From NCBI GenBank assembly GCA_021463195.1, contig JAJTXZ010000030.1, positions 1 to 52,376 of the forward strand: a stretch of DNA of 52,376 bases, written 5' to 3'. Positions 2,490-10,345 of this stretch are shown here, piece after piece. Position 1 is the first letter of the stretch. Each line of letters opens with the position of its first letter. Below the pieces are notes generated by a model. It ran no database searches. It saw only the letters and a list, made by a program, of their open reading frames with translations, and was not told the DNA's origin. This DNA comes from Anaerolineae bacterium (lineage in GTDB: Bacteria; Chloroflexota; Anaerolineae; UBA4142; SHND01). Both the position numbers and the translations under genes were made by a program.

Positions 2490-5219
2490 TCACGGCGCAG
2501 CATTACCTGCCATCCCCATCACTTCAATCTCATTCAGCGCCGCCACGCGCGACCAATACCAATAACCGTCCACGCTGTGGATTACAAAGCGCAATTTGTT
2601 CACCGTCACCGGTTCAGCCAAAGTGATGAGCGTGCCGCCATCCGCGTACGCTTCCACTTGTCCCACCGCGATGGGCGGGCCCACTTTATTTTTGCCCAGC
2701 CATAATTGCAGCGTGCCGCTTGTAATGTGATACGGCGTCGTCGTAGGCCCGCTGCCAAAGCCGCCCCAATCGCCGCCGGTCGGCGGCGCGCCAATCAAAC
2801 GAATGGTTTTGATTTTGACCGGTCGCTTCCATTTTAATTGAATCCATTCGCCCGCCGCGCTGGCGTCCGCATCATGTTCGACGGACATCCAACCCGTTTC
2901 ATTATCCTGCAAATTAGGATCATCGGCGGTCACTTGTTCCGGTTCACTCGACTTGGGCGCTTCGACAAATTTTCCGTCACGCAAAACTTGGAGCAAACCG
3001 CCGCGCGGCGCATTAAGCGAATCATTGCGCGCGACGGGATTCGGCGGGCCGCCGGAGGGCAGTGGAATGAAACCGCGTCGGTCATTGACGCGCGCGGGAT
3101 CGAACGGCTGATATTGGTCGTCCGCGCGATTTTCCGACGACGCGCGCGCTTTGGCGTACGGCGCCACATTCGTCCAGCCCGCGCTCGCTTCCGTCGGGTT
3201 GGTAATCGAACCGCTGACGTGTCCAAAATGACAACCGATGCAGGTCACGGTTTGACCCGGGCGCGCGTACGCGTTGCCTTGCGCGATGGTGATATAACCG
3301 CGCCGCCATTTGCTCACCACGCGCCCGGCGGCATCGCGCAGCACAACGAACGCGGGAACGTCCGCCGGAATTTGCGCGGTAAATTCGCCGCGCGGCGAAA
3401 CCGGCACGCTTGTAAATTTGATACCACGCTGTTGAATATCCTGTTTGAAACCGTCGCACGAATCGGGCCAATCGCCATAACAATACGCGCCGGTGAATTG
3501 ATTCGCCAGCAGCCACACTTCGGCGAGCGCGACGCTGCCGGGGGGGGGAGAATTATTGATAAACGGCAAGGCGAGTGGCGCGTTGGCGTACACATTCGGA
3601 TTGTGAATTGTCGCCATTTGCATCGTGCCGACGGTTTTTTGCGACCAACCATACGGTTTGGGCAGCGTATCGGAAGGCACATTCCATTGCTGCGGGTCGT
3701 CGCTGCTCTGCGTGGTAAATTGGTCGGGCATAGCAGCCCAGCCGCTGCGCGGCGCAAGCGCTTTGGCGTCCAGCGCGTCTGCCGCGCCAATATCGGCGGC
3801 GACCTGCGTTTTGGCGCTGCCGTCAATATTCATGGTGAACAATTTGTATTGCAATTTTGAACCTTGCAAATCAAACACGCGCTGCGTCGTTGGGTCGGTG
3901 TAACTTGCGCGCGTCGGCAAAGTATTGTCGGCGGTTTGGGCGTATGAAAAGAGAATCGTCCCATCGGGCATGCCGGCGGGATGAATGGCGTACGGCGGCG
4001 AAGAATCGTCCTGCGCCCACGCTTTTTCGTACGTCAATCCCGCAATCGCGTCGGGAATATTGGCGTACAACATTTCCACGCCGGGCAGCGCGACGCGGAT
4101 GCCGGTCTTTTGCGTCGAATGCACCATCGTCGTATCTTGCTGCGAGGTGAACGCGATGTACATTTTGCCGCCGTTGAAAACTAACGCGGGCTGCGCGGCG
4201 GTGTACGTATCCAAACCGGAATCTTCGGTCCGCGCCCATTCCGCATACGGCGTAAAGGCAAAACGTTGAAACGCGCTGCCGTCCGGATTCACCACATGCA
4301 AATGCCAAGTGTTGGGCGCGTCGCGGATGGCGTAACCGTTCGGCAGTTTGCCGGTTGGCGGATTAAAGGTTTCGTCCGGATTCGCGTAAATAACCGTGCC
4401 ATCTTTTAATGTCCTGTTCACGGCGCGATTGTCTATACGATTGAAAACAGCTTTGCTCGCGGGCTGATTAAAATTATTCCACCAGCGCGCAAACAAAATG
4501 CGCCCATCGGGCAGCGGTGTCGGATGCAACAAACCGCCGCGTTCCGTCGTGATGCGATGCAAATCCGAACCATCGGCATTGACAAGATACAAATTGTACG
4601 CGGCGCGTCCGTCATATTCCGAACGCGAAGGATAACGCGACGAGGCAAACACAATGCGACCATCCGCCAAATACGCGGGGAACAAATCATTCCACCATGC
4701 GTACGTTGCGTGATTGCCGTAATCGTATCCGTTTTTATTATTATTGGGAACGCTTGTGAACGCGCGGTCGGGAATCGGAATTTTGCGAAACCCGGAACCG
4801 TTGACGCCGATTTCGTACAAACGCCAGCCGTACTGGGGCGATTCCGCGTCAATGGTCGTCGCGCCCGCGAAAATAATTCTTGTCGCGTCGAATGAAACAT
4901 CGGGCGCTTGCACATCAATCAAATTGCCGGTGGACGCGGAAGGATTCGCGCCATCCACCAACGTCGTCAGCGCGCCGTTCGCGTGGCGCAGCATCAGTTT
5001 GGAACCGGGCGCGAATTTTGGCAAGCCCGAACCAAATTGGCCCGCGGGCCCCTTTTCATCGCGAAAAATATCGTCTTGCGTCGCCAAATGCGCGCGCGCC
5101 ACAAAGACAATCGCGATATCAGCGGCAGCGGTTTGCGCCGCGAACGCAGAGGAAAGCGAAAATAGGCCCAGCGCGAGCAGAGCAAACGCGCACAGGCGCA
5201 AATATAAGATGAAACGCAT
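2490..5219 (-). CDS. Exported beta-propeller protein with c-type heme motif (hydrazine synthase alpha-like)
   Basis: 909 residues. A signal peptide (hydrophobic core at about residues 5-25, ending SSAFA) sends it out of the cytoplasm. The first ~500 residues hold TolB/WD40-like repeats such as LPDGRILFARW and MPDGTILFSYA, typical of a beta-propeller. CIGCH at residues 660-664 is a CxxCH heme-c attachment motif. The C-terminal ~120 residues (WIQLKWKRPVKIKTIRLIG, then LRFVIHSVDGYW) look like a discoidin/F5-8 carbohydrate-binding fold. The propeller followed by a CxxCH segment resembles the widespread relatives of the hydrazine synthase alpha subunit; hydrazine synthesis itself is not implied, as no beta or gamma subunit or other anammox gene is present. 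A run of nine G lies at 3540-3548 in frame. Confidence 0.7.
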   Translation of the reverse strand: MRFILYLRLCAFALLALGLFSLSSAFAAQTAAADIAIVFVARAHLATQDDIFRDEKGPAGQFGSGLPKFAPGSKLMLRHANGALTTLVDGANPSASTGNLIDVQAPDVSFDATRIIFAGATTIDAESPQYGWRLYEIGVNGSGFRKIPIPDRAFTSVPNNNKNGYDYGNHATYAWWNDLFPAYLADGRIVFASSRYPSRSEYDGRAAYNLYLVNADGSDLHRITTERGGLLHPTPLPDGRILFARWWNNFNQPASKAVFNRIDNRAVNRTLKDGTVIYANPDETFNPPTGKLPNGYAIRDAPNTWHLHVVNPDGSAFQRFAFTPYAEWARTEDSGLDTYTAAQPALVFNGGKMYIAFTSQQDTTMVHSTQKTGIRVALPGVEMLYANIPDAIAGLTYEKAWAQDDSSPPYAIHPAGMPDGTILFSYAQTADNTLPTRASYTDPTTQRVFDLQGSKLQYKLFTMNIDGSAKTQVAADIGAADALDAKALAPRSGWAAMPDQFTTQSSDDPQQWNVPSDTLPKPYGWSQKTVGTMQMATIHNPNVYANAPLALPFINNSPPPGSVALAEVWLLANQFTGAYCYGDWPDSCDGFKQDIQQRGIKFTSVPVSPRGEFTAQIPADVPAFVVLRDAAGRVVSKWRRGYITIAQGNAYARPGQTVTCIGCHFGHVSGSITNPTEASAGWTNVAPYAKARASSENRADDQYQPFDPARVNDRRGFIPLPSGGPPNPVARNDSLNAPRGGLLQVLRDGKFVEAPKSSEPEQVTADDPNLQDNETGWMSVEHDADASAAGEWIQLKWKRPVKIKTIRLIGAPPTGGDWGGFGSGPTTTPYHITSGTLQLWLGKNKVGPPIAVGQVEAYADGGTLITLAEPVTVNKLRFVIHSVDGYWYWSRVAALNEIEVMGMAGNAAP

Positions 5220-5542: not shown

Positions 5543-6655
5543 ATGCAAGTACGTATCCCCTTTGTCGTGATGGCGCTCGCCATCGTCTCTGCCATTTTTG
5601 TCGCGTGCGCCACCCCTGCGGTAGCGCCGACCAGCGCCCCACCCACTGCTGCGCCCGCGCAGCCCACTACCGCGCCCGCGCAACCCACTACCGCGCCGGC
5701 AGCGGAACTCAAGGGCGAATTGAATATGCTCTGCACGCCGCAGCAGGAATGGTGTGACGGGATGAAAAAAGAATTTGAAGCCAAGAATCCCGGCGTCACC
5801 GTGAACTTTGTCCGCTTGTCCAGCGGCGAAGCGCTGGCGCGTCTGCGCAGCGAAAAAGAAAATCCGCAATTCGATATCTGGTGGGGTGGTCCGATTGATT
5901 CCTTTGTCGCCGCGAAAGGCGATGGCTTGCTCGAACCCTACCAATCGCCGAATTACGCCAATATCATCAATCCGAAATTGATGCTCGACCCCGATGGACA
6001 ATGGGTTGGCATCTATGTCGGTTCGCTCGGTTTTGGCACGAACAACGATTTCCTCAAAAACAATCCAAGCGCCAAAGCGCCCACCTCAATGGACGATTTG
6101 CTCAAACCCGAGTTCAAGGGCCAAATTTTTATGGCGCATCCCGCGACCTCCGGCACGGCGTACACCTTTGTCTGCACGATTTTGCAACAGCGCGGCGAAG
6201 AAAAGGGTTGGGAATATCTCAAGCAATTCACGCAGAATGTCGCCCAGTACACCAAGAGCGGCGCGGCGCCCGTCCAATCCGTTGGTCAGGGCGAAGGCGC
6301 GCTCGGCATCGTCTTTTCGCATGATATTGTCGCCGGCATCGAAAAAGGTTTGCCCTTGACGCTTAGTTTCCCTGAAGAGGGCACCGGTTACGAAATCGGC
6401 GGCATGGGCATTATCAAAGGCGCGAAAAATCTTGACCTCGCCAAAGCGTGGTTCGATTGGGCGCTTGAACCATCAACGCAAGAACTCGGACCGAAATACA
6501 ACGCGTTCCAAGCGCCAACCGTCAAAGGCGCCACGCCATCGCGTCCCGAGTTGCTCAAAGTCAAGTTGATTGACTATGATTTCGAATGGTGCGGCAAAAA
6601 CAAAAAAGCGTTCGTAGACAAATTCACGAACGAAATCGCGCAACCGCCGCAATAG
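5543..6655 (+). CDS. Iron(III)-type ABC transporter substrate-binding lipoprotein
   Basis: 370 residues. Lipoprotein signal with cysteine in IFVACATP, then a low-complexity linker of PTTAPAQ repeats (about residues 25-55), then a type II periplasmic-binding fold. The segments FEAKNPGVTVNFVRLSSGE and NPQFDIWWGGPIDSFVAAKGDGLL match binding proteins of the Fbp/AfuA iron(III) group, which also includes polyamine and phosphonate relatives. The start at 5543 is fixed by GAGGAGGAG six bases upstream. It is followed on the same strand by a fused permease and an ATPase, making a full importer. Iron is the likeliest ligand by family, but the ligand residues cannot be confirmed by eye. Confidence 0.85.
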   Translation: MQVRIPFVVMALAIVSAIFVACATPAVAPTSAPPTAAPAQPTTAPAQPTTAPAAELKGELNMLCTPQQEWCDGMKKEFEAKNPGVTVNFVRLSSGEALARLRSEKENPQFDIWWGGPIDSFVAAKGDGLLEPYQSPNYANIINPKLMLDPDGQWVGIYVGSLGFGTNNDFLKNNPSAKAPTSMDDLLKPEFKGQIFMAHPATSGTAYTFVCTILQQRGEEKGWEYLKQFTQNVAQYTKSGAAPVQSVGQGEGALGIVFSHDIVAGIEKGLPLTLSFPEEGTGYEIGGMGIIKGAKNLDLAKAWFDWALEPSTQELGPKYNAFQAPTVKGATPSRPELLKVKLIDYDFEWCGKNKKAFVDKFTNEIAQPPQ

Positions 6656-6672
6656 TCAGTCATCAGTGATCA

Positions 6673-6775
6673 GTAGTTTGGCAATGTCGCATTTGTCATT
6701 GCGAACCGCGCTTGTTGCGATGAACTGCTTCGCATCCCTCGCAATGATATTTCGAATCTGACATTGCCAAAGTAG
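6673..6775. mobile_element. MITE-like palindromic element
   Basis: A perfect 12-bp inverted repeat, TTTGGCAATGTC at 6677-6688 and GACATTGCCAAA at 6760-6771, encloses a second one (CATTGCGA at 6697-6704, TCGCAATG at 6739-6746). Both ends are flanked by GTAG (6673-6676 and 6772-6775), possibly a target-site duplication. The surrounding bases are a degenerate CAGTNATCAGT phrase, so the element seems to have landed in another repeat. No coding capacity. Confidence 0.55.
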
Positions 6776-6842
6776 TCAGTCGTCAGGAATCAGTGAACAA
6801 TAACGAGTGTGCGCGGTGCATGCCGCGCACACTCACCACTTT

Positions 6843-9191
6843 ATGAGCGCCTCTCTTCCCATTTCTACTTCTGCCCGCGCGACGAGCGCCTCGCTCGCGC
6901 GTCGCATGCGCGAGTTTCGTCTCATCGCGCGTGACCCGGTGCTGCTCGTCGGCGTGCTGGTGGCGAGCGCATTCATTCTCACCTTTATCGTATGGCCCCT
7001 CTGGCGCGTCATCGTGCAGGGTTTCTTTACGCCTGCAGGCGAGTTTAGTCTGCAATATTTCGCGCGCTATTTCGAGCCGAGTTATGCGCGCGCCTATTGG
7101 GATATTCTCGGTTGGACGTTAGAGATGGGCATTCTGACCGCGCTCGGCAGCACCGCGCTCGGCTTTTTGTTTGCGTACACTGTCGTGCGCTGCGACATTC
7201 CGTTCAAAGGATTGGTGCATGCGCTCACTTTGCTCCCTACCATCTCGCCGCCGTTCGCCATCGCGCTGGCAGCGATTCTTTTGTTTGGGCGTTCCGGGTT
7301 CGTTACGCGCGATCTGTTAGGTATGCGTTTTGGTCCGGGCATCAACGACATTTACGGACTCGACGGCATTATCTTTTGTCAGATCATTACGTACTTTGCG
7401 ATTACGTATTTGATTCTGCGCGGTTTGCTTGAACGGATTGACCCTTCGATGGAAGAAGCCGCGCTCTCGCTCGGCGCAAGCAAGTGGCATATTTTTCGCA
7501 CCGTCACGCTGCCGTTGATGACGCCGGGCATCGCCGCCGCGTTCCTTTTGATGTTTGTGGAATCGCTCGCCGATTTGGGCAATCCAATTCTCATCGGCGG
7601 CAACATCACTGTTTTGTCAACGCAGATTTGGATTGCCGTCAACGGCGAACACGACCTGCAAAAAGGGGCCGCGTTGTCGCTCGTGCTTTTAATTCCCACG
7701 CTCACTGTTTTTGTTTTGCAGCGCTATTGGGTCTCGCGTCGTTCCTATATCGCCGTCACGGGCAAACCGACGAGCGGCGCGGCGACGTTCGTCAAAGAGC
7801 CGTTTGTGCGCTGGACGTTTATTACGTTGACGACGCTCACGCTGCTCTTGATTATCGCGCTCTACGCCACCATCTTTATCGGTTCGATCACCAAACTCTG
7901 GGGCATCAACAATTCGCTCGACCTGTCGCATTACGAAGCGGTGTTCAAGCGCGGCTTGGAGGCGATTCTCGATACGACCTTTCTTGCCGCGCTGGCGACT
8001 CCGCTCGCAGGCATCGCGGGTGTGGTCATTGCCTTTCTCGTCGTCCGCAAAACGTTTAGCGGCAAAGAAGCGGTTGATTTCATGTCGAATCTCGGCGGCG
8101 CGGTGCCGGGCACCATTCTCGGCATCGGTTATATCCTCGCCTTTATTCGCGCGCCCATGTTCGTCGTCGCCATCGTCTATGTCGCGCTCGCGTATTTCTT
8201 TGTCAGCGCCGTGACCCCAAAGACGAATTTGCGTTGGCTCATCTTTGGCATCGGTTCGCTCATTGGGATTGCGTTGGCATGGCTTTCGTATGATGAAAAA
8301 TTGCGGACGACGGGCGCGTTCAATAGCTTGAGCGGCGGATTAACTTGGCTGCCCACGCTTGAACCCACGCAGTGGTTGTATCTTGGCGTGGGCATTCTCT
8401 TGACGCTCGCGTTGGCGAGTCTCGTTTTTGTCGAGGGCAAAGCGAAACAGCGCGTCTTTTTATTGCTCGTCTTTATGGCGCTCTATTTGCTTTCGCGCGA
8501 ACTCGTGTTGTGGGTCACAGAACCAATCGCCGTGTGGGGACGCAAACAGGGCGGCGATTATTTGCCCGCTGTCATCACTACGATAGCGTCGTGGATTGCG
8601 CTCGTGTTTCAACCGCCGCTCGCGATACTTGGTTTCACCTATCTCGTTCTCGGCGGCTTTATTGTTGGAATGTGGCGCGCGCGCGCGCGTCTTGGCGCCG
8701 GCGTTATCTTGCTCGCCGTCTGCTGCGCGCTCACCTTTTATGGCGAACCGCTCGCGCTCGTTGGCAGCGCCTACATCGTGCTTGCCGCGTATGCAGTGCG
8801 TTCACTCCCCGCGACGGTGCGCGCGAGCGTCGCGTCGTTACAACAAATTGACCCGGCGATAGAAGAAGCGTCCACTTCGCTCGGCGGCGACGCGCAGCAT
8901 ACCTTTCGCCGCGTCACCTTGCCGTTGATTTTGCCCGCGTTCATCGCGGGACTCATTTTCAGTTTCGCGCGCCACATGACTTCGCTGTCGGCGATTATTT
9001 TTCTCACCACGCCGAAATGGCCCATTCTCACCGCGCTGATTTTGAGCGAAGTGGAACAGGGCGGACTTTCGCTCGCCGCCGCGTATTCGATTGTGTTGAT
9101 TGTCATTGTGCTTGCGGCGATTGGACTCTTGTATCTGTGGGCGGGGCGCGCGTTCCGCGTAGGTTCCGAAATCACAATGGGCGGAGGATAG
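6843..9191 (+). CDS. Fused two-domain iron ABC transporter permease with large insertion
   Basis: 782 residues, an inner-membrane permease of the FbpB type with both transmembrane domains in one chain. The ATPase-coupling EAA loops are MEEAALSLGASKWHIF (about residue 202) and IEEASTSLGGDAQHTF (about 672). FbpB proteins are usually about 500-560 residues. Here about 200 extra residues, with several more hydrophobic segments, sit in the second domain at about 457-657. The flanks of the insertion resemble each other (APMFVVAIVYVALAYF and PLALVGSAYIVLAAYA), as if a helix had been duplicated. The start at 6843 is preferred because upstream codons are uncharacteristic; no good ribosome site is visible. 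Works with the genes on either side. Confidence 0.82.
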   Translation: MSASLPISTSARATSASLARRMREFRLIARDPVLLVGVLVASAFILTFIVWPLWRVIVQGFFTPAGEFSLQYFARYFEPSYARAYWDILGWTLEMGILTALGSTALGFLFAYTVVRCDIPFKGLVHALTLLPTISPPFAIALAAILLFGRSGFVTRDLLGMRFGPGINDIYGLDGIIFCQIITYFAITYLILRGLLERIDPSMEEAALSLGASKWHIFRTVTLPLMTPGIAAAFLLMFVESLADLGNPILIGGNITVLSTQIWIAVNGEHDLQKGAALSLVLLIPTLTVFVLQRYWVSRRSYIAVTGKPTSGAATFVKEPFVRWTFITLTTLTLLLIIALYATIFIGSITKLWGINNSLDLSHYEAVFKRGLEAILDTTFLAALATPLAGIAGVVIAFLVVRKTFSGKEAVDFMSNLGGAVPGTILGIGYILAFIRAPMFVVAIVYVALAYFFVSAVTPKTNLRWLIFGIGSLIGIALAWLSYDEKLRTTGAFNSLSGGLTWLPTLEPTQWLYLGVGILLTLALASLVFVEGKAKQRVFLLLVFMALYLLSRELVLWVTEPIAVWGRKQGGDYLPAVITTIASWIALVFQPPLAILGFTYLVLGGFIVGMWRARARLGAGVILLAVCCALTFYGEPLALVGSAYIVLAAYAVRSLPATVRASVASLQQIDPAIEEASTSLGGDAQHTFRRVTLPLILPAFIAGLIFSFARHMTSLSAIIFLTTPKWPILTALILSEVEQGGLSLAAAYSIVLIVIVLAAIGLLYLWAGRAFRVGSEITMGGG

Positions 9192-9257
9192 GCAGATAGC
9201 AGGTAACAGGTAACAGGTAGCAAGTTCCCTAATTCCCAAGACCCATTACCTGCTGCT
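9192..9257. repeat. Degenerate palindromic phrase repeat
   Basis: AGCAGGTAA at 9198-9206 faces TTACCTGCT at 9246-9254, with the word AACAGGTAACAGGTA between. One of the many imperfect phrase repeats between genes in this window. Confidence 0.5.
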
Positions 9258-9271
9258 TGCGACATATCACC

Positions 9272-10345
9272 GTGTATTTAACTCTCGATCATATTACTAA
9301 AAAATTTCCCGGACGCGGACAGGAAGGAATAGTCGCCGCGGTGGATGATTTGTCGCTCGAAATCGGCAAGGGCGAATTTTTCACGTTTCTCGGCCCTTCG
9401 GGCTGCGGCAAGACCACCACCCTGCGTTTGATTGCGGGTTTTGAATTTCCAACTAGTGGACACATCTTGCTGGATGGCGCGCAACTAGAGCAAGTGCCGC
9501 CTAATAAACGCGATATGGCGATGGTGTTTCAGAGTTACGCGATTTTTCCGCATCTCAGTGTTTTTGAAAATATCGCGTATGGCTTGCGCATCAAAAAATT
9601 GCCGTCCGACGAGATACGCCGCCGCGTCGGTCAAATCATGGCGCAGACCAAATTGGATGGTCTGGAAAATCGGATGCCCAATCAAATGTCCGGCGGGCAA
9701 CAGCAGCGCGTCTCGCTCGCGCGCGCGCTGGTGATCGAACCCAAAGTTTTACTCTTTGACGAACCTCTGTCGAACCTCGACGCGAAATTGCGCGAAGAGA
9801 TGCGTTTCGAGATTCGCGATTTGCAGCATCGCCTCAATATCACTTCAATTTATGTGACGCACGATCAGGAAGAAGCGCTCGCGTTATCGGACCGCATCGC
9901 GATTATGAACAAAGGCAAACTCGCGCAGCTTGGCACGCCCGAAGAAATCTATGAACGGCCGCGCTCTAAATTTGTCGCGGATTTTATCGGACTGGCGAAT
10001 TTTTTGCCCGCGCAAGTGCAAACGATTCAAGATGGACGCGCGTTCGTTCGCGTAGGCGCGCATTCGCTGCAAGTAACCGCGCTGCCGAACAATACGGCGG
10101 GTCAGGCGGCGCTTATTTTCGTTCGCCCCGGCGATTTGGAAATCGCGGCGGAAACAGAGCGCGAAAATATCCTCGAAGGCAAAATCATCAAAGCGACCTA
10201 TCTTGGCGAAAAGATTGATTATCGCGTGCGCGTGGATGAAACCGAATTGCGCGTCCAAGCGGCTAAAGGCGCGCGGCGCGCGGCGGGCGAAGCGGTGCGT
10301 TTGTATCTGCCGCCTGAACGCGCGCATTTGATTGACGCCGAATAA
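9272..10345 (+). CDS. Iron(III)/polyamine-type ABC transporter ATP-binding protein
   Basis: 357 residues, the ATPase that drives the importer. Walker A is GPSGCGKTTT, the Q-loop FQSYAIFPHLSVFEN, the signature MSGGQQQRVSLARAL, Walker B LLFDEPLSNLD and the switch histidine VTHDQEEAL. The C-terminal ~120 residues form a TOBE-like domain, as in the FbpC/PotA group. The start is uncertain: GTG at 9272 fits the usual N-terminus (YLTLDHITKKFPG), and a TTG at 9257 is also in frame; neither has a clear ribosome site. Third gene of the importer operon. Confidence 0.87.
   Translation: MYLTLDHITKKFPGRGQEGIVAAVDDLSLEIGKGEFFTFLGPSGCGKTTTLRLIAGFEFPTSGHILLDGAQLEQVPPNKRDMAMVFQSYAIFPHLSVFENIAYGLRIKKLPSDEIRRRVGQIMAQTKLDGLENRMPNQMSGGQQQRVSLARALVIEPKVLLFDEPLSNLDAKLREEMRFEIRDLQHRLNITSIYVTHDQEEALALSDRIAIMNKGKLAQLGTPEEIYERPRSKFVADFIGLANFLPAQVQTIQDGRAFVRVGAHSLQVTALPNNTAGQAALIFVRPGDLEIAAETERENILEGKIIKATYLGEKIDYRVRVDETELRVQAAKGARRAAGEAVRLYLPPERAHLIDAE

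What the first reader, a model, noticed from the sequence alone, without database searches (positions are those of the whole stretch)
6843..9191. Iron permease with a 200-residue membrane insertion bordered by similar helices
The second permease half contains several additional hydrophobic stretches before its EAA loop. The segments on each side (APMFVVAIVYVALAYF; PLALVGSAYIVLAAYA) look like two versions of one helix, suggesting insertion with duplication. ABC permeases rarely tolerate insertions in the core.
Basis: partly seen in the sequence, partly recalled or inferred. Interest (0 to 1): 0.52.

Follow-up and report, generated by a model that had tools for sequence, protein, structure and literature searches.

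The report
ABC permease with six-helix membrane insert
An ordinary two-half nutrient-import permease of a Chloroflexota bacterium carries an extra, well-conserved bundle of about six membrane helices in an outward-facing loop; the whole lineage has it, it resembles no catalogued domain, and the transporter probably takes up phosphorylated compounds rather than iron.

Summary
One open frame (window 6843-9191, 782 aa) is an FbpB/AfuB-type two-half permease, and its second half contains about 198 extra residues (window 8154-8747) that relatives of 548-614 aa lack. The insert lies in the outward-facing loop between helices 3 and 4 of that half, before but not inside the EAA coupling region. It is predicted to fold by itself as six membrane helices plus one short helix, and the core still superposes on Thermus FbpB (489 of 490 residues). 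It is no accident of one genome: 42 of 90 distinct full-length relatives carry it, as one clade of Chloroflexota, under purifying selection. No Pfam, NCBIfam or PDB relative was found. Not supported: the 'duplicated helix' (the named pair scores like other helix pairs) and 'iron' (the adjacent binding protein keeps the sugar-phosphate ligand residues of AfuA). Pantoea and Rhizobiaceae AfuB permeases are also long, but by an unrelated N-terminal extension. Its function is inferred only: an accessory membrane module that stabilises or tunes the importer. New variant of a known kind.

The parts
5543..6655 (+). Substrate-binding protein of the AfuA/P5PA kind, putative lipoprotein
   Evidence: best solved relatives AfuA 4r72 (E 2e-67), 8x1a, P5PA 6wce; AfuA ligand residues Y103, H205, D206, E229 kept in 32 of 32 binding proteins of long-form loci
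6843..9191 (+). Two-half type I ABC importer permease, 782 aa, with insertion
   Evidence: (PF00528 48 bits, cut-off 26.4)
7428..7478 (+). First EAA (coupling-helix) motif, residues 196-212
   Evidence: strongest internal repeat pair, residues 196 and 666
7800..8153 (+). Second half, helices 1-3 (residues 320-437), shared with insert-free relatives
8154..8747 (+). The insertion, residues 438-635: six predicted membrane helices plus one short helix
   Evidence: pLDDT 91.7, pTM 0.85 when folded alone
8157..8213 (+).
8223..8282 (+). Insert helix b (461-480)
8364..8429 (+). Insert helix c (508-529)
8436..8546 (+). Insert helix d (532-568), long; includes the conserved WGR segment
8562..8609 (+). 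Insert short helix (574-589), probably interfacial
   Evidence: its interfacial place is inferred from topology
8619..8669 (+). Insert helix e (593-609); of the insert helices the most like core helix 4
   Evidence: (40-nt DNA match 8616-8655 with 8748-8787, 70%)
8679..8735 (+). Insert helix f (613-631)
8769..8846 (+). Core helix 4 of the second half (643-668), leading into the EAA loop
   Evidence: aligned with helix 4 of the short forms
8838..8888 (+). Second EAA (coupling-helix) motif, residues 666-682
   Evidence: (L666-A676 invariant in 54 sequences)
9257..10345 (+). ATP-binding subunit (PotA/PhnT2-like, with TOBE_2 domain)

Best explanation
A standard type I ABC importer permease of the FbpB/AfuB kind in which, once, in the ancestor of a Chloroflexota lineage, an independently folding six-helix membrane module was inserted into the outward-facing loop between helices 3 and 4 of the second half. 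An even number of helices keeps both coupling helices on the cytoplasmic side, so the core works as usual: the AfuA-type binding protein delivers a phosphorylated metabolite (probably a sugar phosphate), the ATPase closes and the substrate is admitted. The module packs beside the core in the membrane and, most likely, stabilises the single-chain permease or tunes its gating or binding-protein docking. Shown by computation: insertion, place, topology, single origin, selection, intact core fold, ligand residues. Inferred: substrate, lateral packing, role.
For: Insert present in 42 of 90 distinct full-length proteins with a clear length gap, 753-820 against 548-614 aa. On a tree built without the insert the 42 are one clade, SH-aLRT 100, next to ten short-form Chloroflexota proteins; the same for 46 in a second tree. 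Own order: 17 of 20 genomes have it, 10 of 10 of the best ones. Insert model: pLDDT 91.7, pTM 0.85 alone. Core: Z 28.5, rmsd 3.2, 489 of 490 residues of FbpB 9j4r_A. Inside loops positive (mean K+R 2.1-3.2, D+E 0.3-0.5) and outside loops near neutral. dN/dS 0.11-0.35 in the insert, 0.06-0.11 in residues 20-437, 15 pairs of six genomes. Binding-protein ligand residues.
Against: The insert diverges much faster than the core: 22-46% identity outside the genus against 61-82%, as a loosely constrained filler would. No neighbour beyond the binding protein and ATPase is shared by many loci, so context gives no role. No solved relative suggests a function; no model coordinates were available, so packing was not seen. 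AfuA's Thr60 is Pro here.
Confidence: 0.6

Rival explanations
1. The insert arose inside the protein by duplication of the helix 3-helix 4 hairpin, so its helices are decayed copies of core helices.
For: Residues 592-607 against 636-651 rank 2nd of 190 helix pairs by family profile at 16 residues and 4th of 153 at 20, p 0.006 against helix 4 of insert-free relatives; DNA 8616-8655 and 8748-8787 are 70% identical; 34-residue windows 424/622 and 587/631 score above the known half-1/half-2 pair 89/375.
Against: The 34-residue shuffles do not keep hydrophobic register and do not discriminate.
Confidence: 0.15
2. The insert is a captured foreign membrane protein or domain, grafted whole, that keeps a function of its own, such as substrate sensing or a docking site for the membrane-anchored binding protein.
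For: It folds alone with high confidence, its boundaries are sharp, it has conserved residues (alignment columns G38, R130, Q153, R179 of A2), it is kept throughout the clade, and no relation to the core is found.
Against: No free-standing homologue: Pfam and NCBIfam nothing beyond chance hits, each family matching at most 2 of 42 members, PDB sequences only 6u8y_D at E 0.003, Foldseek best E 0.42, VIA best Z 7.4 to designed bundles; in 400 Chloroflexota genomes the only clear matches are permeases.
Confidence: 0.3
3. The insert is neutral membrane ballast: a tolerated loop expansion that is only kept folded and harmless.
For: Fast divergence and relaxed dN/dS relative to the core; sister proteins in Chloroflexota also have 14-25 extra residues in this loop, so the site tolerates growth.
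Against: dN/dS well below 1; kept in all 42 proteins of the clade as sampled; small length range except for one loop.
Confidence: 0.25
4. Artefact: frameshift, chimeric assembly or pseudogene.
For: In two relatives the assembly breaks inside this region (L024 has a run of N, L025/L037 lie on two contigs), and L023 is reported with one internal TAG.
Against: Same open frame and same length in six genomes of the genus and in dozens of other assemblies.
Confidence: 0.01

Closest known systems
FbpB, ferric ion importer permease of Thermus thermophilus (PDB 9j4r)
   Same: Single chain with two permease halves; 489 of 490 residues superpose, Z 28.5, rmsd 3.2.
   Different: No insert; only 22% identity; our operon's binding protein is not of the iron type.
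AfuABC (hexose/heptose phosphate importer) and P5PAB (pyridoxal phosphate) of Actinobacillus
   Same: Binding protein of the same subfamily with Y103, H205, D206, E229 and the S148-G149-T150 phosphate site kept (papers PMC4546632 and PMC8427247, passages read); same gene order binding protein-permease-ATPase as afuABC.
   Different: Thr60 is Pro. AfuB-type permeases of Pantoea and Rhizobiaceae (740-767 aa) owe their length to an N-terminal multi-helix extension of about 150 residues and lack this insert. The Actinobacillus AfuB sequence itself was not examined.
PhnU2 (TIGR03262, putative 2-aminoethylphosphonate permease)
   Same: Best NCBIfam model, 248 bits.
   Different: Far under the curated cut-off of 593.25; the model has 546 positions and no room for the insert.
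Short-form permeases of Chloroflexota, Clostridium, Negativicutes, Paenibacillus (548-614 aa)
   Same: 41-51% identity to the window protein, same operon, AfuA-type binding proteins.
   Different: No insert; Chloroflexota members have 14-25 extra residues in the same loop.
MalF P2 domain of the maltose permease (recalled, and passages of PMC8134467)
   Same: A large segment on the outer face of one permease half of a type I importer; there it moves around the binding protein MalE.
   Different: MalF P2 is a soluble domain (recalled), placed between other helices; ours is hydrophobic and predicted membrane-embedded.

Membership tests
Type I ABC importer permease (BPD_transp_1, PF00528) | Matches the Pfam model over its cut-off | tested here: met
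   48 bits against 26.4, residues 105-299
Type I ABC importer permease (BPD_transp_1, PF00528) | EAA coupling motif in each half | tested here: met
   Residues 196-212 and 666-682
Type I ABC importer permease (BPD_transp_1, PF00528) | Permease fold | tested here: met
   Predicted model against 9j4r_A: Z 28.5, 489 of 490 residues
Ferric iron transporter FbpABC | Iron-type binding protein (FbpA) in the operon | tested here: not met
   Closest solved relatives are AfuA (E 2e-67) and P5PA (E 2.8e-63); the iron-utilization protein 1d9v only E 1.1e-5
Ferric iron transporter FbpABC | Transports Fe3+ | not testable with these tools
   Needs binding and uptake assays
AfuABC sugar-phosphate importer | Ligand residues of AfuA | tested here: met
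   Y103, H205, D206, E229, S148, G149, T150, S37, G38 and Q269 kept in the window protein; T60 is P
AfuABC sugar-phosphate importer | N-terminal multi-helix extension seen in Pantoea/Rhizobiaceae AfuB | tested here: not met
   Absent in the window protein; no profile relation of that extension to the insert
AfuABC sugar-phosphate importer | Uptake of glucose-6-phosphate or related compounds | not testable with these tools
   Needs the delta-uhpT complementation assay
PhnU2 / PhnS2 (TIGR03262, TIGR03261) | Score over the curated cut-off | tested here: not met
   248 of 593.25 bits and 215.9 of 392.75 bits
MalF-P2-like periplasmic domain | Soluble domain on the outer face | tested here: not met
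   Insert hydropathy peaks and predicted membrane helices
ECF transporter S-component (six-helix membrane binding unit) | S-component fold | tested here: inconclusive
   Not among the Foldseek or VIA rows shown for the insert; a missing match shows nothing

The most novel reading that the evidence does not exclude
The insert is a new, independently folding six-helix membrane domain with no relative outside these permeases, kept for a function of its own in the importer. Permeases served by AfuA-type binding proteins have gained unrelated membrane modules at least twice at different sites: this insert in Chloroflexota, an N-terminal extension in Proteobacteria, and possibly a further first-half insert in one Deinococcus. 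The family would thus show how ABC importers acquire accessory membrane domains.
Probability: 0.4. Interest if true: 0.6.

Novelty: new variant of a known kind. Interest (0 to 1): 0.42.

Why it matters
Type I importer permeases are usually compact, and large additions are few and mostly soluble (recalled). A clade-wide, conserved, membrane-embedded insertion of six helices that leaves the core intact shows that the outward-facing helix 3-4 loop can carry a whole membrane module, and gives a natural with/without pair (long and short forms with the same kind of binding protein) for testing what such modules do. It also adds to the case that many 'iron ABC transporter permease' labels on AfuA-type operons are wrong.

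Tried and rejected
Duplication of flanking helices: tested in four ways and left as a minor rival. Known family for the insert: Pfam and NCBIfam on all 42 inserts, PDB sequences with the insert profile, Foldseek and VIA on the insert model; only chance-level hits. The absence of a family from those structure lists excludes nothing. Insert elsewhere: of 7 of 400 Chloroflexota genomes matching the insert profile, five are permeases (own genome included) and two (G127, G209) are chance hits, since their loci L124 and L125 give no match to the permease. No plasmid record covers 80% or more of the long permease, 0 of 1675 records with a match. No viral contig encodes a relative of the insert.

Homology with the AfuB N-terminal extension: none detected, probability 1.5%. 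A relative with a 757-residue open frame, G061, looked like another insertion but is a frame change near the 3' end. Genome context: beyond binding protein and ATPase no neighbour is shared by more than 10 of 58 loci. Paper searches for an insertion of this kind gave nothing relevant (search listings only); this library lacks most subscription papers. A guess that the spacer 6653-6810 is a dispersed repeat was not borne out. A search in E. coli genomes for an AfuB-like permease by DNA found only partial matches, none covering 80% of the query, so it was not used.

Rows dropped: fifteen loci (L003-L008, L023-L025, L037, L066, L073, L074, L100, L111) were left out before alignment as partial, weakly related or doubled, and eleven identical proteins were merged, leaving 90. 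In one search loci were a chosen 34 long and 24 short. In one search five distant rows were left out, and row L136 took a wrong 1004-residue frame by my script's error, so I read nothing from it; that script also gave no usable sister for the N-terminal group.

Full report
WHAT IS THERE. Window 6843-9191 (+) encodes one 782-residue protein between an extracellular binding protein gene (5543-6655) and an ATP-binding subunit gene (9257-10345). Pfam finds the importer permease domain (48 bits, cut-off 26.4). NCBIfam's best model, PhnU2, scores 248 bits against a cut-off of 593.25, so no curated equivalog applies. Both halves carry an EAA coupling motif; residues 196 and 666 start the strongest internal repeat.

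THE INSERTION. I searched 60 related genomes and one genome for each of 84,980 species (103 of 146 matching stretches encode a relative, the best 80 kept, 79 loci). By the tblastn spans, 38 of those 79 loci run through the insert, two of them (L073, L074) fragments, and 41 do not. After removal of partial and duplicate entries, 90 distinct proteins fall into two length classes: 42 of 753-820 aa and 48 of 548-614 aa. The difference is one block, residues 438-635 of the window protein (window 8154-8747), occupied in all 42 long proteins and, apart from ragged edges of about four residues on each side, empty in the short ones. In the 42 long proteins it measures about 174-201 residues. It lies after helix 3 (GIGYILAF) and before helix 4 (PLALVGSAYIVLAAYAVRSLP) of the second half, that is, in the outward-facing loop and ahead of the coupling helix.

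TOPOLOGY AND STRUCTURE. AlphaFold2 on 54 aligned proteins gives pLDDT 82.9 and pTM 0.82 for the whole; the insert alone, with 36 sequences, gives 91.7 and 0.85. The insert helices are residues 439-457, 461-480, 508-529, 532-568, 574-589 (short), 593-609 and 613-631. Six membrane crossings are needed to keep helix 4 and the EAA loop inside. The charge pattern agrees: in 42 proteins the three inside loops average 2.1-3.2 Lys+Arg and 0.3-0.5 Asp+Glu, the outside loops being neutral or slightly acidic, except for the longest (net +0.8), which contains the short helix. The full model superposes on Thermus thermophilus FbpB (9j4r_A) over 489 of its 490 residues, Z 28.5, rmsd 3.2, spanning model residues 46-777 (Foldseek target TM-score 0.82). 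The core is therefore predicted intact. I had no coordinates, so where the insert packs is inferred.

WHO HAS IT. A tree built without the insert columns puts all 42 long proteins on one side of a branch with SH-aLRT 100; their neighbours are ten short-form Chloroflexota proteins, which have 14-25 extra residues in the same loop. A second tree with 46 long proteins agrees. This fits one gain and no observed loss. In the window's order 17 of 20 genomes match the insert profile, and 10 of 10 of those at least 90% complete and at most 5% contaminated. In 400 genomes drawn across the phylum, 27 have a family member at E 1e-70 or better; five match over the whole length and 22 only in about the first 430 model positions. 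Of those 22 I read eight (G022, G038, G059; G061, G073, G195, G331, G397): none has the insert. The insert profile alone matched 7 of the 400, five of them these permeases and two chance hits. Thirty-seven of the 38 insert-bearing loci have a title naming a Chloroflexota group (for Litorilinea and Candidatus Aquidulcis the phylum is partly recalled); L054 is titled only 'bacterium', but falls among Caldilineaceae in the tree.

SELECTION. Between the window protein and members outside its genus the insert is 22-46% identical and the core halves 61-82%. Among six genomes of the genus, 15 pairs, dN/dS is 0.11-0.35 in the insert and 0.06-0.11 in residues 20-437. The insert is thus looser than the core but still under purifying selection.

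IS IT A DUPLICATION? Against helix 4 of 30 insert-free relatives 5.5% of shuffles reach its score. Helix e (592-607) is closer to helix 4: 2nd of 190, p 0.006 before correction for six tests, and a 40-base DNA match of 70% in this window. Profile-profile comparison of the whole insert finds no relation to half 1 (0.3%), half 2 (1.1%) or the short forms (0.8%), while half 1 against half 2 gives 97.4%. Duplication is not excluded for helix e but is not supported in general.

IS THE INSERT A KNOWN DOMAIN? With Pfam and NCBIfam no family matches more than two of the 42 inserts, and the best E-value is 0.0022. The PDB sequence search with the insert profile gives one weak match, 6u8y_D, E 0.003. 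Foldseek's best E is 0.42; the best VIA score is 7.4 over 128 residues, to designed helix bundles, a level that the tool itself calls common. So no known relative was found, with the limit that no library of predicted cellular structures was at hand.

NOT IRON. The binding protein's closest solved relatives are AfuA (4r72, E 2e-67), 8x1a and P5PA (6wce); the iron-utilization protein 1d9v follows only at 1.1e-5. [quoted passage not shown] PMC8427247 (passages) names further ligand residues and the pyridoxal-phosphate protein. In the window protein Tyr103, His205, Asp206, Glu229, Ser37, Gly38, Ser148, Gly149, Thr150 and Gln269 are kept and Thr60 is Pro; Y103, H205, D206 and E229 are kept in 32 of 32 binding proteins of long-form loci and 22 of 23 of short-form loci. 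A phosphorylated metabolite, probably a sugar phosphate, is the likeliest substrate; this is inferred.

OTHER LONG RELATIVES. Beside AfuA-like binding proteins on Pantoea and Rhizobiaceae plasmids lie permeases of 740-767 aa, one annotated afuB. Their extra length is an N-terminal multi-helix extension of about 150 residues, not this insert, and it shows no profile relation to the insert (1.5%). One Deinococcus protein of 806 aa has an N-terminal extension and further hydrophobic blocks in its first half. So accessory membrane segments were gained at different places in this group.

MECHANISM. Shown by computation: the insertion, its site, a topology that keeps both coupling helices inside, a predicted intact core, one origin, purifying selection, an AfuA-like ligand site. 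Inferred: normal alternating access with a phosphorylated substrate, lateral packing of the module, and a role in stability, gating or docking of the binding protein. Precedents for change on this face: periplasmic loop 2 is the only notable difference between PotB and PotC (passage of PMC11414716), and MalF's P2 loop shows rigid-body motions around its binding protein (passages of PMC8134467).

VERDICT. It is a new variant of a known transporter type, of moderate interest.

Noticed in passing
window 5543-6655: The binding protein next to the 'iron' permease is of the AfuA/P5PA subfamily and keeps the sugar-phosphate ligand residues; the iron label is probably wrong for this whole group.
   Followed up: yes
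L129:6030-8252, L131:6026-8248, L139:2123-4375: AfuB-type permeases of Pantoea and Rhizobiaceae have an N-terminal multi-helix extension unlike the Chloroflexota insert; an inositol monophosphatase family gene follows the operon in L129 and L131, in keeping with a phosphorylated substrate.
   Followed up: partly
L130:4882-7302: A Deinococcus plasmid permease of 806 aa has an N-terminal extension and further hydrophobic blocks inside its first half; one sequence only, not checked for frame errors.
   Followed up: partly
L024 and L025/L037, inside the insert region: Two related assemblies (G011, G007) break within the insert region, at nearly the same place.
   Followed up: partly
L123 (G228): A long-form permease with an additional stretch of about 30 residues in the outer loop of the insert.
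   Followed up: no
L082, L089, L092, L098 (clusters 5 and 6): In 7 of 24 short-form loci (Clostridium and kin) genes that look like a sensor kinase and an AraC-type response regulator follow the importer, suggesting two-component control there; the labels are my reading of the sequences.
   Followed up: no
window 2490-5219 (-): A 909-residue protein with weak matches to the hydrazine synthase alpha middle domain and F5/8 type C domains and a CxxCH motif (TCIGCH), upstream of the operon; also present upstream in one relative, L038.
   Followed up: no
window 6653-6842: The spacer between binding protein and permease holds near-direct repeats (6646-6674/6766-6794) and inverted repeats (6674-6693/6755-6774); only a 24-base piece recurs once elsewhere in the genome.
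   Followed up: yes
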